NCBI GenBank assembly: GCA_009784375.1
Contig: WRBV01000003.1
Location: forward strand, 1-64,000
DNA from: Bacillota bacterium
Lineage (GTDB): Bacteria > Bacillota > Clostridia > Christensenellales > UBA1242
Direction of reading: 5' to 3'
Length of the DNA: 64,000 nucleotides
In this document: positions 1 through 4,199 of the stretch, one piece after another
Position numbering within the stretch: the first letter of the stretch is position 1
Layout of the letters: the number at the start of each line of letters is the position of its first letter
Notes under the pieces: model-generated
The model's input: the letters and a program-made list of their open reading frames with translations, nothing else
Databases searched by the model: none
Told to the model about the DNA's origin: nothing
Made by a program: the position numbers and the translations under genes

Positions 1-33
1 GTAGGAAGAGAAATAGAAGTACTCGAATTGTAG
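1..33 (+). CDS. C-terminal end of an upstream gene (partial)
   Basis: Frame 1 is open from the window edge and reads VGREIEVLEL before a TAG stop at 31-33. A strong hairpin terminator follows six bases later, which supports this as the real end of a + strand gene. Ten residues are too few to name a family. The reading is inference from the stop-plus-terminator context. Confidence 0.4.
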   Translation, partial: VGREIEVLEL

Positions 34-38
34 AAGGT

Positions 39-64
39 GGAAAGAATAGTTCTTTCCATTTTTT
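39..64 (+). terminator. Intrinsic terminator after the upstream gene
   Basis: GGAAAGAA (39-46) and TTCTTTCC (50-57) form a perfect 8-bp stem with a TAG loop, followed by ATTTTTT. Confidence 0.75.
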
Positions 65-90
65 CTTACCGAACAAACCCATATCACTTA

Positions 91-141
91 CGACACCTCG
101 CCCCGCTGGATTGCTTCGTCGCCATGCTCCTCGCAATGACG
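91..141. repeat. Dispersed GTCATTGCGAG-type intergenic repeat
   Basis: On the - strand this reads as GTCATTGCGAGGAGC, then GAAGCAATCCAG and a GGGGCGAGGTGTCG end. It is the style of short palindromic chromosomal repeat (GTCATTGCGAG...GCAATCC) seen between genes in many bacterial genomes. Three GTCAT-type intergenic relatives occur at 8872-9005, 27706-27731 and 63424-63488. It lies upstream of the promoter of the surface protein gene and encodes nothing convincing. Confidence 0.55.
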
Positions 142-178
142 GTATGCGGAGTTATTCTGGCTACCATGCATAATTTGT

Positions 179-207
179 TTGACTGTTTCGCAAAATATAG
201 ATACAAT
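179..207 (+). promoter_or_regulatory. Sigma-A promoter of the InlB-repeat surface gene
   Basis: TTGACT (179-184) and TACAAT (202-207) are separated by 17 bp. Transcription would start near 214, leaving a leader of about 105 nt that contains a small ORF with a poly-G tract. Confidence 0.7.
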
Positions 208-253
208 TAGACATAGAATTGAATGCAAAAGAAGAACGTCGGAGGGTATCGAT

Positions 254-322
254 ATGTTAAATAATAGATATACGGGGGGGGGGCAATTTTCTTGTAATCC
301 TTTCCAGGGTGGTGTGATATGA
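254..322 (+). CDS. Leader peptide ORF with a ten-G tract, overlapping the next start
   Basis: A GGAGGG ribosome binding site (241-246) sits seven bases before an ATG at 254. The 22-codon ORF starts MLNNRYTGGGQ, and its three Gly codons lie in a run of ten G (274-283). Its TGA stop (320-322) overlaps the ATG of the surface protein gene (319) as ATGA, the arrangement of translational coupling. With 11 G the peptide would end about 22 bases before that ATG; with 9 or 12 G it would end one base before it. The ORF and run are seen directly; a role in coupling and phase variation is inference. Confidence 0.55.
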   Translation: MLNNRYTGGGQFSCNPFQGGVI

Positions 323-2529
323 ACACACCAAGAAGATTCCGCCATTCCCGTATAGCCGCACTTGCGTTTGCAGGTGTTTTTGTAGTATGTGCCGTGGTTA
401 TGGGTGTTGTGTTTTCGATGAATAAGAGTGATACACCGAGTCCAGAGGCTGCTACGCCGAGTACTAATCATATTGCACTTGTAATAACGAATGGGCATTT
501 GGCAACTGGGAGCAATACACCAACATTTATTGAAGGAACGGCAACGAATGCCGCGATTACAGTTGGACAAATGCATATAAGTGCACCAACGACGACAGTA
601 ACAAATTTTTTGCCAGCAAATACGAGTCATAGACAGTTTATGGTACCTATTACTGGTGGATCTGCACGATTTTATGTGACAACTCGTACAATAACGTTCC
701 CTGCGGGCGTATCATCATTTGGTCATTTCATAAGTGAGGGTACTTCTACAATCGCAGGAGTGACTCCAACTACATTAACAGGTGGTACTTTACTTCCAAC
801 GCATGTGGCTGGATATGTTCCACCTGCTCCAATTAATTTTGCGTCAAGAACTGTGTCAATAGCAAATCGAACAACATCTATGACAGTTACGCAAGTTATG
901 TGGTATGGTCAAAGCCGTACTTTAGGTACTGATTATTATGGTAACCCAACAACATGGAGTAATTGGCACTCGGGGTTATGGTCAAATGGTGCTATTCAAG
1001 GAACAGGCATGTTCAGAGTGCACCCATCTTGGGGTACCGAGCATAGACGTGCAATTTACACGTCGCCTGCTGTTGCTGCTACGGGTACGAATATTAATAT
1101 AAATGTGGCACCGCTTAATACAATATTTATTCCTTGGCAAACACATAACAGAGTACCTTTGGCTGGTAATAATATTATTACAAATTTTGCAGCACGGACA
1201 GCTCTGCCATCTATGCAGGCACATATCACTTCACAAACTGCTACACACTTAAATGTACAGGTTAGTCTTTCTGCAGCAGCTCCGTTCGGTATGTATTTAA
1301 TGGGCGGATTTCATCAAAGAACTACTGGAACATGGGCTCAATCGGAGGCGGCACATAATGGTGTTAATGTTGCTGCAGCAACTGTTTCACATAGAGGAAC
1401 GATAAATATTAGTGTGCCACAAGTGAATTGGAATGAACCAATTTCGCATGGTACTCAATTCGAGAATGCATTCAGAAATAGAATTCATGTGGTCGTAGGC
1501 ATGTATTATCACAACGCCAACAACGCAACACCAACCCGACCCATAACATTTAATTTGCAGAGTGGACATATAGGCGGTGACTTTTCGCAGGTAACGGTTG
1601 ACGTTCCAAATAACCAGCCAGTTGTTGCGATAACCGATCCGCAAAGGGCTGGGCATACTTTTATTCATTGGTCGGCAGCACCAGGCGGTTCGTTTTGGAA
1701 CTTTAATACTTTGATAAGTGCGAATAATACGATTAATGCGAACAACAGGCTGTATGCGGTGTGGCGTGTTAATCCGATAGTTCAATTTAACACACATGGT
1801 GGAAGCACAGTATTACAACAAGAGATTTCATATGGTGGACGAATTGTCCAGCCAGGAGACCCTACGCGTAGTGGATATAGTTTCCGTCATTGGTCAAATG
1901 TCCAAGATGGGGTTACCCCGTGGAATTTCAATAATACTGTTACGACTAATATGACTTTGCATGCCGTATTTGACGAGGTCGTTTGGCGTACAATTCATCT
2001 TCGTGTTGGAAATCCGTTGAATGACACAAGTATGACGATGACACTCTTCCGACCAGACGGTTATTTGTTACAGCTGCGTGATAACACACCGAGTCAGATT
2101 GATCTGGATTTCCTTGGATGGGCGTGGAGTGCGGATGCCGCGCGTAACAAAGTAATTGCGTTCCAGCCTAATGGAATTGTAGCTATGATTTCACCTATTC
2201 CTATGACCTTGTATGCGGTGTGGGATATTGAATGGAATAATTTTCCAGGCATTGATGGGCATAATACATTGGTATTTAATTTCAGCGGTGGGTTAAATCC
2301 ACATTCGATAATTGTAGAGGAAAGGCGATTCTTTGCTTGGGATCCATCGTCACGTATGTTGCCCAATGATGAATACATGCACAACTTTGCTATTAATAAT
2401 CATGATTTTAATGGGTTGATATTCACGGGCTGGTTTGATAATCCAGGCTTTGTGGGGCAGAGACATTTTTCAATCCCTGCAGGCTCGGTGGGTGAGGTTA
2501 GGTTTTATGCTAGATGGATGGAAGTTTAA
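319..2529 (+). CDS. Secreted or anchored surface protein with InlB B-type repeats
   Basis: A 736-residue protein with an N-terminal export segment (hydrophobic residues about 13-33 after Arg/His-rich residues) and a Thr/Ala/Asn-rich extracellular region. From about residue 430 there are four Listeria-Bacteroides (InlB B-repeat, Flg_new-like) units, each ending in a pattern like LYAVW or FYARW and containing a G-x-x-F-x-x-W core. Such repeats are typical of cell-surface adhesin-like proteins of gut Firmicutes. No LPXTG or C-terminal membrane segment is seen, so it may be held by its N-terminal anchor. The start at 319 is chosen because it follows an AGGGTGG-like site and overlaps the leader ORF stop. 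Expression may depend on that leader. Ligand unknown. Confidence 0.8.
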   Translation: MNTPRRFRHSRIAALAFAGVFVVCAVVMGVVFSMNKSDTPSPEAATPSTNHIALVITNGHLATGSNTPTFIEGTATNAAITVGQMHISAPTTTVTNFLPANTSHRQFMVPITGGSARFYVTTRTITFPAGVSSFGHFISEGTSTIAGVTPTTLTGGTLLPTHVAGYVPPAPINFASRTVSIANRTTSMTVTQVMWYGQSRTLGTDYYGNPTTWSNWHSGLWSNGAIQGTGMFRVHPSWGTEHRRAIYTSPAVAATGTNININVAPLNTIFIPWQTHNRVPLAGNNIITNFAARTALPSMQAHITSQTATHLNVQVSLSAAAPFGMYLMGGFHQRTTGTWAQSEAAHNGVNVAAATVSHRGTINISVPQVNWNEPISHGTQFENAFRNRIHVVVGMYYHNANNATPTRPITFNLQSGHIGGDFSQVTVDVPNNQPVVAITDPQRAGHTFIHWSAAPGGSFWNFNTLISANNTINANNRLYAVWRVNPIVQFNTHGGSTVLQQEISYGGRIVQPGDPTRSGYSFRHWSNVQDGVTPWNFNNTVTTNMTLHAVFDEVVWRTIHLRVGNPLNDTSMTMTLFRPDGYLLQLRDNTPSQIDLDFLGWAWSADAARNKVIAFQPNGIVAMISPIPMTLYAVWDIEWNNFPGIDGHNTLVFNFSGGLNPHSIIVEERRFFAWDPSSRMLPNDEYMHNFAINNHDFNGLIFTGWFDNPGFVGQRHFSIPAGSVGEVRFYARWMEV

Positions 2530-2533
2530 TTAT

Positions 2534-2567
2534 AAAAGGGTATCATTAAACTGATACCCTTTTTTTC
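2534..2567 (+). terminator. Intrinsic terminator after the surface protein gene
   Basis: GGGTATCA (2538-2545) pairs with TGATACCC (2552-2559), followed by seven T. Confidence 0.9.
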
Positions 2568-2654
2568 TTTGCCTATGCAAGAAATATATGTTAAATTCAT
2601 TTAATGATAAGAAAAGCCATATCGTGACTTTTCTTAGGATCGAAGGAATTATTT

Positions 2655-4199
2655 ATGGCAATAACAAAAGTTAAAAGCTTTGGGATAAGTGGAATTGACG
2701 GATACGTTGTTGATGTCGAGGTTGATATTTCAAGTGGATTGCCCAATTATTTCCTTGTAGGGTTGCCCGATGCAAGTGTAAAAGAAAGCAAGGAACGTGT
2801 GCAAAGTGCCATACGCAATAGTGGCTTTAAATTTCCGTATTCGCGGATTGTTGTTAATTTGGCTCCTGCGTCTACTCGGAAAGAGGGGGCTTTGTACGAT
2901 TTGCCGATTGCAATTGGTGTTCTTGGCAATACTGGTGAAATATTTAATGCGGACAAAATTTCCGAATTTGCATTTGTGGGTGAGCTTGGTCTTGATGGCG
3001 AAATACGTGGAGTAAAGGGTGTGTTGCCGATATTAATTGCGGCGGCAAGTAATGGTATTAAAAAAGTAATTATCCCGACCGAGAATGCTCACGAGGCGGC
3101 GTTTATTCATGGTGTTACGGTATTTACCGCGGGTTCATTGCGACAAGTTGTAGATGCGTTAAACGGCGTTAATGTGGACGCCATTGAACGAGTCGAGAAG
3201 CGAAGCTTCGAGGACATGAAGAGAGAGTCACAGCATGCACTTGATTTAAAATTTGTACGTGGGCAATTTGTTGCAAAGCGGGCGTTGGAAATCGCGGCAA
3301 GTGGTGGACATAATATCTTGTTAATTGGACCACCAGGAAGTGGAAAGACTATGCTTGCAAAATGCTTTCCGACTATATTGCCAGATCTTACATTTCAAGA
3401 AAGTTTGGAAGTCAGCAAGATACACAGCATCGCGGGAACATTGGATTCCAAAGATGGGATAATTACTATGCGACCGTTTCGGACTCCGCATAATACTGCA
3501 TCCGTTGTGGCACTTGCGGGTGGTGGCAAGACCGCAAAGCCTGGTGAGATTTCGCTTGCACACAATGGGGTATTGTTCCTTGACGAATTGCCAGAATATC
3601 CACGGGCAAGTCTAGAGATGTTGCGCCAACCGTTGGAGGACAATACGATTACTATAGCACGTTCGCATGCGACGGTACAGTATCCTGCGGCATTCACAAT
3701 GATTGCAAGTATGAACCCATGCCCATGCGGAAATTATGGCAGCCGCGTTCAAAAATGTACATGCAGACCAGGCATGATGCAGAAGTATCTTGCAAAGCTG
3801 TCGGGTCCGTTAATGGACCGTATTGACCTTCATATAGAAGTCGATAGTGTCACGTATGACGATTTGACGGCAAAAGGTATGGGTGAGCCAAGTTCGGTGG
3901 TACAGGCACGCTGTGGCGACGCCAGGGCGGTACAATTGAAACGGTTTGCGGGTTCACGAGTATTTTGCAACGCAAAGATGAGTGAAGAGGATTCGAAATT
4001 ATATTGTCAATTGGATGAACAAGGCGAGCGAGTTTTGCGTACCGCTTTCGAGAAATTGAACTTGTCGGCTCGTGCCTATGCACGTATAATTCGGGTTGCA
4101 CGAACTATCGCCGATTTGGAAGGAAGCAAAGACATCTTGTCCGAACATATTACCGAGGCGGTGAGTTATAGAAATTTGGACAGGAAGTACAAAGGGTAA
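2655..4199 (+). CDS. yifB: YifB/ComM family Mg-chelatase-like AAA+ ATPase
   Basis: 514 residues, the usual length for YifB/ComM. It has the N-terminal ChlI-like domain (conserved GLPDASVKES and VNLAPAS stretches), then a Mg-chelatase-type AAA+ module with Walker A GPPGSGKT at residues 225-232 and a Cys-rich MNPCPCGNYG...CTC segment near 353-366, and a C-terminal helical domain. ComM is a branch-migration helicase in natural transformation in other bacteria. The next gene is dprA, also a transformation protein, and this pairing is common in Firmicutes. A GAAGG site 9 bases upstream supports the start. Confidence 0.95.
   Translation: MAITKVKSFGISGIDGYVVDVEVDISSGLPNYFLVGLPDASVKESKERVQSAIRNSGFKFPYSRIVVNLAPASTRKEGALYDLPIAIGVLGNTGEIFNADKISEFAFVGELGLDGEIRGVKGVLPILIAAASNGIKKVIIPTENAHEAAFIHGVTVFTAGSLRQVVDALNGVNVDAIERVEKRSFEDMKRESQHALDLKFVRGQFVAKRALEIAASGGHNILLIGPPGSGKTMLAKCFPTILPDLTFQESLEVSKIHSIAGTLDSKDGIITMRPFRTPHNTASVVALAGGGKTAKPGEISLAHNGVLFLDELPEYPRASLEMLRQPLEDNTITIARSHATVQYPAAFTMIASMNPCPCGNYGSRVQKCTCRPGMMQKYLAKLSGPLMDRIDLHIEVDSVTYDDLTAKGMGEPSSVVQARCGDARAVQLKRFAGSRVFCNAKMSEEDSKLYCQLDEQGERVLRTAFEKLNLSARAYARIIRVARTIADLEGSKDILSEHITEAVSYRNLDRKYKG

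What the first reader, a model, noticed from the sequence alone, without database searches (positions are those of the whole stretch)
254..322. Poly-G tract inside a leader ORF that overlaps a surface-protein start: candidate phase switch
Seen: a strong GGAGGG site, a 22-codon ORF with ten consecutive G in its Gly codons, and a stop that overlaps the ATG of the InlB-repeat protein as ATGA. Established: homopolymer tracts of this length slip during replication, and ATGA overlaps couple translation. Inference: slippage changes where the leader ribosome stops (at the ATG with 10 G, about 22 bases upstream with 11, one base upstream with 9 or 12), so it could tune the surface protein without touching its own frame. 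Most known poly-G switches lie in the gene or in the promoter.
Basis: partly seen in the sequence, partly recalled or inferred. Interest (0 to 1): 0.7.

Follow-up and report, generated by a model that had tools for sequence, protein, structure and literature searches.

The report
Poly-G leader switch on surface genes
A run of ten Gs sits in a tiny gene just ahead of a surface-protein gene, and because the same small cassette, with 10 or 11 Gs, occurs six times in this bacterium's genome, it probably works as a heritable on/off switch that decides whether ribosomes reach the surface protein's start.

Summary
It is also one of six copies. In this 1.08 Mb genome every run of at least nine Gs (11 distinct loci) lies in one of two settings: the -35/-10 spacer of five promoters, or this leader cassette ahead of six dispersed, diverged Listeria-Bacteroides-repeat surface proteins. 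Each cassette has promoter, GGAGG, leader ATG, G10 or G11, an ATGA overlap and a hairpin with the surface-protein ATG in its loop. The sequenced copies are in different phases: two leaders end on the surface-protein ATG, four end 19-22 nt upstream. The window copy and its nearest sister have leaders that differ only by G10 versus G11 and one substitution. No tract length can fuse leader and surface protein in any of the six, whereas start-proximal poly-G genes elsewhere in the family nearly always can fuse. The best explanation is a phase-variable translational-coupling switch: tract length sets where the leader ribosome stops, and only ribosomes reaching the start hairpin open it. This is untested by reads or expression. 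Each ingredient is known: poly-G slippage, leader-ORF attenuators, a G-repeat in an mRNA leader (tlpB/RepG). I found no report of this combination.

The parts
179..207 (+). Promoter: TTGACT (179-184), 17-nt spacer, TACAAT (202-207); all six cassettes keep a 17-nt spacer, so the G tract is transcribed, not in the promoter
241..246 (+). Shine-Dalgarno of the leader ORF (GGAGGG; GGAGGT in the five sisters). Duplex energy with anti-SD -10.0, against gene median -5.9 kcal/mol
254..322 (+). Leader ORF, 22 codons in the G10 state, stop TGA 320-322 overlaps the surface-protein ATG
274..283 (+). G10 tract, proposed slippage element; G10 or G11 in the five sister cassettes
295..297 (+). TAA in the frame of the main ORF; stop of the leader when the tract is G11 (or G8). 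Closes the main frame so that leader and surface protein cannot fuse
315..317 (+). TGA used by the leader with G9 or G12, one base before the main ATG
297..310 (+). Small hairpin over part of the main Shine-Dalgarno: ATCCT (297-301) with AGGGT (306-310)
310..330 (+). Start hairpin: TGGTGTG (310-316), loop ATATGAA with the start codon, CACACCA (324-330); -8.6 kcal/mol; kept in all six cassettes, with two pairs changed on both sides in C2:5730
319..2529 (+). Surface-protein ORF, 736 aa: N-terminal membrane/signal segment shared by the six paralogs, two PF09479 Listeria-Bacteroides repeats

Best explanation
The segment is a phase-variable translational-coupling switch, one of six copies in the genome, each controlling a different surface protein of one family. 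SHOWN by sequence: promoter, strong leader ribosome site, leader ORF with a G10/G11 tract, and a surface-protein ATG inside a predicted hairpin loop with its ribosome site in the stems. Adding or removing one G moves the leader stop between the surface-protein ATG, one base before it (five of six copies), and about 20 nt upstream, and never fuses the two ORFs. INFERRED: the tract slips during replication. When the leader ribosome terminates on or beside the ATG it has opened the start hairpin, and reinitiation or fresh initiation makes the surface protein (ON). When it terminates about 20 nt upstream, its leading edge (near -12) stops short of the -9 to +11 hairpin and the surface protein is poorly made (OFF). 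In the sequenced genome two copies (window, C2:5730) are in the coupled phase and four in the early-stop phase, as expected for a repertoire expressed a few at a time.
For: Six dispersed copies with intact tract, leader SD and ATG. SD-to-ATG block 93% mean identity, against 71% for the promoter-to-SD block, about 32% differences at fourfold sites of the adjoining signal segment, and 34-54% identity between the surface proteins. The leader of C4:97382 differs from the window leader only by G11 and one substitution, and is in the early-stop phase. All six keep A as the first base of codon 2 (AAC, ACC, ACC, AAC, AAT, AGC), preserving ATGA while residue 2 varies. TTA to CTG (Leu to Leu) in the C6 leader fits a translated leader. 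The start hairpin pairs in 100% of cells with two double-sided changes; start-region folds rank in the most stable 2-9% of 64 gene starts. Poly-G in promoter spacers in this genome and in 11 of 147 family genomes, control 0; start-proximal poly-G contingency genes in other genera. Precedent: a frame change in the ermC leader ORF lets ribosomes run into the spacer, unfold the mRNA and allow initiation (PMC5009743).
Against: No reads, strains or expression data; tract counts in a draft assembly can be off by one. The main ORF has a fair ribosome site of its own (-8.0 kcal/mol, stronger than 77% of gene starts), so the OFF state may be leaky. Hairpin covariation comes from only six related sequences (35 of 500 shuffles reach it), and 4.5% of all ATGs in the window have a stem of 7 or more around them. 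The cassette was found in this one species only, so conservation across species is untested.
Confidence: 0.55

Rival explanations
1. RepG-like control: the G tract in the mRNA leader is a target of a C/U-rich small RNA or of in-cis pairing (TATACGGG with CCCGTATA inside the main ORF), and length acts through pairing strength, not reading frame.
For: Direct precedent: RepG targets a variable G-repeat in the H. pylori tlpB leader, strongest at 9-12 G (PMC8295292). Folding of the whole leader pairs the tract with CCCGTATA in most copies.
Against: The tract lies in a well-formed ORF with a near-perfect SD and a stop overlapping the next ATG in the matching phase, which pairing alone does not need. 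The outer part of the in-cis helix is broken in C2:5730 without compensation. No such sRNA was identified; Rfam shows no known RNA in 1-3000.
Confidence: 0.15
2. Relic of an ordinary in-frame poly-G contingency gene: the leader was once the protein's N-terminus, the main frame gained a stop, and the surface protein is now made constitutively from its own site.
For: In the congeneric genome G004 a similar stretch (AATAAATATC-G9-CAACTTTTC) lies in an ORF that, with one more G, runs on into the membrane segment of a surface protein. Most start-proximal poly-G genes in the family are of this fusing kind.
Against: All six copies keep uninterrupted G10/G11 tracts, leader SD and ATG while flanking DNA has diverged. 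A dead tract would be expected to pick up substitutions.
Confidence: 0.15
3. Tract-length heterogeneity arises at transcription (RNA-polymerase slippage on G10/G11), so each cell makes a mixture of leader phases and a graded output rather than heritable ON/OFF states.
For: Slippage on homopolymers is known for RNA polymerase; the cassette would read such heterogeneity in the same way.
Against: The DNA itself differs between near-identical sister cassettes (G10 against G11), showing that DNA-level length change occurs in evolution.
Confidence: 0.1
4. Assembly or sequencing error in tract length makes the phase differences between copies meaningless.
For: Illumina reads over G tracts are error-prone (PMC9187656). 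Two contigs of this assembly (C6 and C4) end inside or beside one cassette with a 123-bp overlap.
Against: Uncertainty of one base changes which copy is in which phase, not the architecture, and every phase is structurally defined in each copy.
Confidence: 0.05

Closest known systems
ermC-type leader-ORF translational attenuators (incl. ketolide-induced frameshifting in the leader)
   Same: Short leader ORF, downstream start held in an RNA hairpin, and the position or frame of the leader ribosome decides whether the hairpin opens (PMC5009743)
   Different: There the input is a drug acting on the ribosome, and reversible within the cell; here it would be a heritable change of tract length in DNA
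H. pylori tlpB G-repeat / RepG small RNA
   Same: Variable poly-G in the transcribed leader of a gene, length tunes expression (PMC8295292)
   Different: In the passages read no leader ORF is described and the length acts through sRNA pairing; here the tract is in codons of a leader ORF with an ATGA overlap
Bifidobacterium breve pilus G-tract switch (bbr_0113a/b, bbr_1889a/b)
   Same: Very short upstream ORF with its own start signals and a G tract before a surface-protein ORF (PMC9187656)
   Different: There the right length fuses the two ORFs and the downstream ORF has no start of its own; here no length fuses them in any of six copies
Promoter-spacer poly-G/C phase variation (for example Neisseria porA, from memory)
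   Same: Occurs in the same genome as class A: TTGACA-8 nt-G10/11-TATAAT at five loci
   Different: Changes promoter spacing; the cassette here keeps a constant 17-nt promoter spacer and has the tract about 60 nt into the transcript

Membership tests
Simple-sequence contingency locus (phase variation by slippage) | Homopolymer well above chance length at a position that could change expression | tested here: met
   11 distinct loci with 9 or more G, about 1.1 expected, all in promoter spacers or leader cassettes
Simple-sequence contingency locus (phase variation by slippage) | Length differs between copies or strains | tested here: inconclusive
   Paralogous cassettes have G10 or G11; no second strain or reads of this locus available
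Simple-sequence contingency locus (phase variation by slippage) | Expression changes with length | not testable with these tools
   Needs reporters or proteomics
Classical intragenic poly-G switch | One tract phase gives a single ORF through the tract into the protein | tested here: not met
   No phase fuses in any of six cassettes; 11 of 12 start-proximal loci in other genera of the family do fuse in one phase
Promoter-spacer poly-G switch | Tract between -35 and -10 | tested here: not met
   Tract is 63-66 nt downstream of the -10 in all six copies; met by the five class A loci
Leader-ORF translational attenuator | Translatable leader ORF directly upstream | tested here: met
   SD GGAGG, ATG, synonymous Leu change between copies; translation itself not shown
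Leader-ORF translational attenuator | Downstream SD/start sequestered in RNA structure | tested here: met
   By prediction only: start hairpin in all six copies, pairing probability 0.98-0.99 with the upstream part covered
Leader-ORF translational attenuator | Ribosome position on the leader controls downstream initiation | not testable with these tools
   Needs reporters, toeprints or ribosome profiling
RepG/tlpB type | Trans-acting C/U-rich sRNA that pairs with the tract | not tested
   No candidate was sought genome-wide; Rfam scan of 1-3000 found none

The most novel reading that the evidence does not exclude
A paralogous surface-protein repertoire in which each gene carries its own heritable translational-coupling switch: replication slippage in a poly-G leader ORF sets the leader stop modulo 3, and a start-codon hairpin reads that position, so the antigen's coding frame is never disturbed. 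This would be phase variation by leader-stop position.
Probability: 0.5. Interest if true: 0.7.

Novelty: new variant of a known kind. Interest (0 to 1): 0.55.

Why it matters
If true, slippage can control a protein without passing through its coding sequence or its promoter, by moving the place where a leader ribosome stops. It predicts an output that repeats modulo 3 with two coupled phases and one uncoupled phase (the reverse in C2:5730), which is easy to test. It would make homopolymers in short upstream ORFs, which annotation ignores, a class of contingency loci to look for in other genomes. It also suggests that this lineage of roughly 1-Mb genomes uses poly-G in promoters, at gene starts, in leaders and probably inside surface genes.

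Tried and rejected
Leader fused to the surface protein in some phase: rejected, the main frame has a stop between tract and ATG in all six copies. Tract as promoter spacer: rejected for this cassette. Cassette in other genomes: a covariance model over 297 family genomes hit only this genome plus a weak match in G280, which on reading is the start of a long protein-coding gene without a poly-G run. Pattern scans of genome contigs and viral contigs gave one chance hit in Paracoccus and none. Congeneric G001 homologs of the signal segment have no leader or poly-G run before the start. The long-range helix between the tract and CCCGTATA was not adopted because it breaks in C2:5730 without compensation. 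Rfam: nothing significant. In one search three of six folds (L046, L048, L049) used wrong coordinates and are ignored; one search gives the right ones. The G8 run at G000:C3:196453 looks like part of a tRNA gene by its sequence.

Full report
OBSERVATION. The window has GGAGGG at 241-246, an ATG at 254, ten Gs at 274-283 and a TGA at 320-322 that overlaps the ATG at 319 of a 736-aa ORF. The tract is the only run of 8 or more Gs in the window. The ORF carries two Listeria-Bacteroides (InlB-type) repeats, PF09479, E = 4.6e-25. A promoter TTGACT-17 nt-TACAAT lies at 179-207, so the tract is about 60 nt into the transcript.

SIX COPIES. The window is contig C3 of a 1.08 Mb draft genome with 12 contigs. 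A search for nine Gs found 12 tracts. Two of these, C4:1 and C6:60246, are one locus cut by the assembly, because the contig ends overlap by 123 identical bases. The 11 distinct loci fall into two classes with nothing left over. Class A is five promoters with the tract in the spacer, TTGACA-AATTC[GA]AT-G10/11-TATAAT (TACAAT in one), at C5:4927, 11758, 23550, 25235 and C4:91478. Class B is the cassette of this finding, at C3:274 (window), C4:97382, C4:21402, C6:60246, C2:5730 and C2:205306. About one run of nine or more is expected by chance in the genome.

ANATOMY OF CLASS B. All six copies have the promoter with a 17-nt spacer, ACGTCGGAGG, a leader ATG 19-20 nt before the tract, G10 or G11, 30-35 nt, and ATGA. 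Each is followed by an intact ORF of 623-744 aa with the same membrane or signal segment (SRIAALAFAGVFVVCAVV), while the whole proteins are only 34-54% identical. The block from SD to leader ATG is 93% identical on average, against 71% for the promoter-to-SD block and about 68% at fourfold sites of the signal segment. The leader of C6 has CTG for TTA, a synonymous change. Codon 2 of the surface protein is AAC, ACC, ACC, AAC, AAT or AGC, so the residue varies but the A that makes ATGA does not.

PHASES. With the tract lengths in the assembly, the leaders of the window (G10) and C2:5730 (G11) stop on the ATG. Those of C4:97382 (G11), C4:21402 (G11), C6:60246 (G10) and C2:205306 (G10) stop at a TAA 19-22 nt upstream. 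The leader ORFs of the window and C4:97382 differ only by one G and one substitution, yet are in different phases. In five copies the third phase stops one base before the ATG; in C2:5730 both other phases stop early. The early TAA of the five is in the main frame (C2:5730 has its own main-frame stop further upstream), so no tract length can join leader and surface protein in any copy. In contrast, of 12 start-proximal poly-G loci found in other genera of the family with the pattern SD-ATG-G9, 11 open a single long ORF in one phase. The congener G004 has a similar stretch (AATAAATATC-G9-CAACTTTTC) whose ORF, with one more G, does run on into the membrane segment of a surface protein. The cassette may therefore descend from an ordinary in-frame switch; that is an inference from one weakly similar locus.

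HAIRPIN. The surface-protein ATG sits in the 7-nt loop of TGGTGTG-ATATGAA-CACACCA, with a smaller hairpin over the rest of its ribosome site. The start stem is -8.2 to -9.7 kcal/mol in all copies. In C2:5730 it is GGTGCA/TGCACC, two pairs changed on both sides, and C6 has a G-U pair. Support is real but modest: six related sequences, and 35 of 500 shuffles reach the observed covariation. The 50-nt start regions rank in the most stable 2-9% of 64 start regions from the window, although 4.5% of all ATGs in the window have a stem of 7 or more around them.

MECHANISM. A ribosome that terminates at the early TAA covers mRNA to about -12 (taking a leading edge of about 15 nt from the P site, from general knowledge), so it stops short of the start stem (-9 to +11). 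A ribosome that terminates on the ATG or one base before it has opened that stem. The prediction is one low phase and two higher phases in five copies, and one high phase in C2:5730. The closest mechanistic precedent is the ermC leader, where ketolide-induced frameshifting lets ribosomes continue into the spacer, unfold the mRNA and permit initiation (PMC5009743). Here the frame change would be written in DNA by slippage. What is shown is the anatomy, the copy number, the different phases of sister copies and the predicted hairpin. Slippage in cells, leader translation and the effect on expression are inferred.

RIVALS. Pairing of the tract with a small RNA, as for tlpB/RepG, where the effect is strongest at 9-12 G (PMC8295292), is the strongest rival and is separated by asking whether output follows length modulo 3. 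A relic of an in-frame switch, slippage by RNA polymerase, and assembly error are treated in their sections.

CONTEXT. Poly-G in a promoter spacer was found in 11 of 147 genomes of the family, with no match for the reversed control pattern. Two other members of the genus carry long G runs: G14 and G12 in reading frames with RCC1-like repeats in G002 (by eye), and G9 at a surface-protein start in G004. The cassette itself, by covariance model, is confined to this species among 297 family genomes.

LITERATURE. Searches combining phase variation with translational coupling, leader peptide, upstream ORF, short ORF or reinitiation returned no case of this design. [quoted passage not shown] The B. 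breve pilus switch is close in layout, but its G tract fuses two ORFs and the second has no start of its own (PMC9187656). The library holds open-licence papers only, so absence there is weak evidence.

VERDICT. Observation confirmed; interpretation supported comparatively but untested. It is a new variant of a known kind.

Noticed in passing
G000:C5:4927-4936 (L044, minus strand): A poly-G promoter (TTGACA-8-G10-TATAAT) precedes a 155-aa protein with an RNA polymerase alpha C-terminal domain (PF03118, E = 4.2e-17) and no other Pfam match: a possibly phase-variable alpha-CTD-like protein.
   Followed up: partly
G000:C5:4927, 11758, 23550, 25235 and C4:91478: Five promoters share nearly identical AAATATTGGGTATTGACAAATTCGAT-G10/11-TATAAT modules ahead of unrelated small genes (two with lipoprotein-like N-termini), as if the switchable promoter itself had been copied around.
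   Followed up: partly
11 of 147 genomes of the same family: Poly-G tracts between TTGACA and TATAAT, up to five loci per genome, none with the reversed control pattern: poly-G promoter switching appears widespread in this lineage of roughly 1-Mb genomes.
   Followed up: partly
G002:C1:253218-254419 (L093): G14 and G12 runs inside reading frames with RCC1-like (GxLWxWG) repeats, looking like ordinary intragenic poly-G switches; this congener thus has the tract inside the gene.
   Followed up: partly
G003, for example C1:13172-13210, C1:39585-39624 (L105, L107): Dozens of paired runs of 8-10 Gs about 31 bp apart with similar spacers scattered through the genome: an unidentified dispersed repeat element.
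   Followed up: no
window 102-143: GCCCCGCTGGATTGCTTCGTCGCCATGCTCCTCGCAATGACGG, an imperfect palindrome-like repeat also found upstream of the C2:205306 cassette and, in variant form, of class A promoters on C5; probably a dispersed intergenic repeat.
   Followed up: no
G000:C6:60246-60368 and C4:1-123: Two contigs end at the same leader cassette with an identical 123-bp overlap: they probably join there and were split by the repeat.
   Followed up: yes
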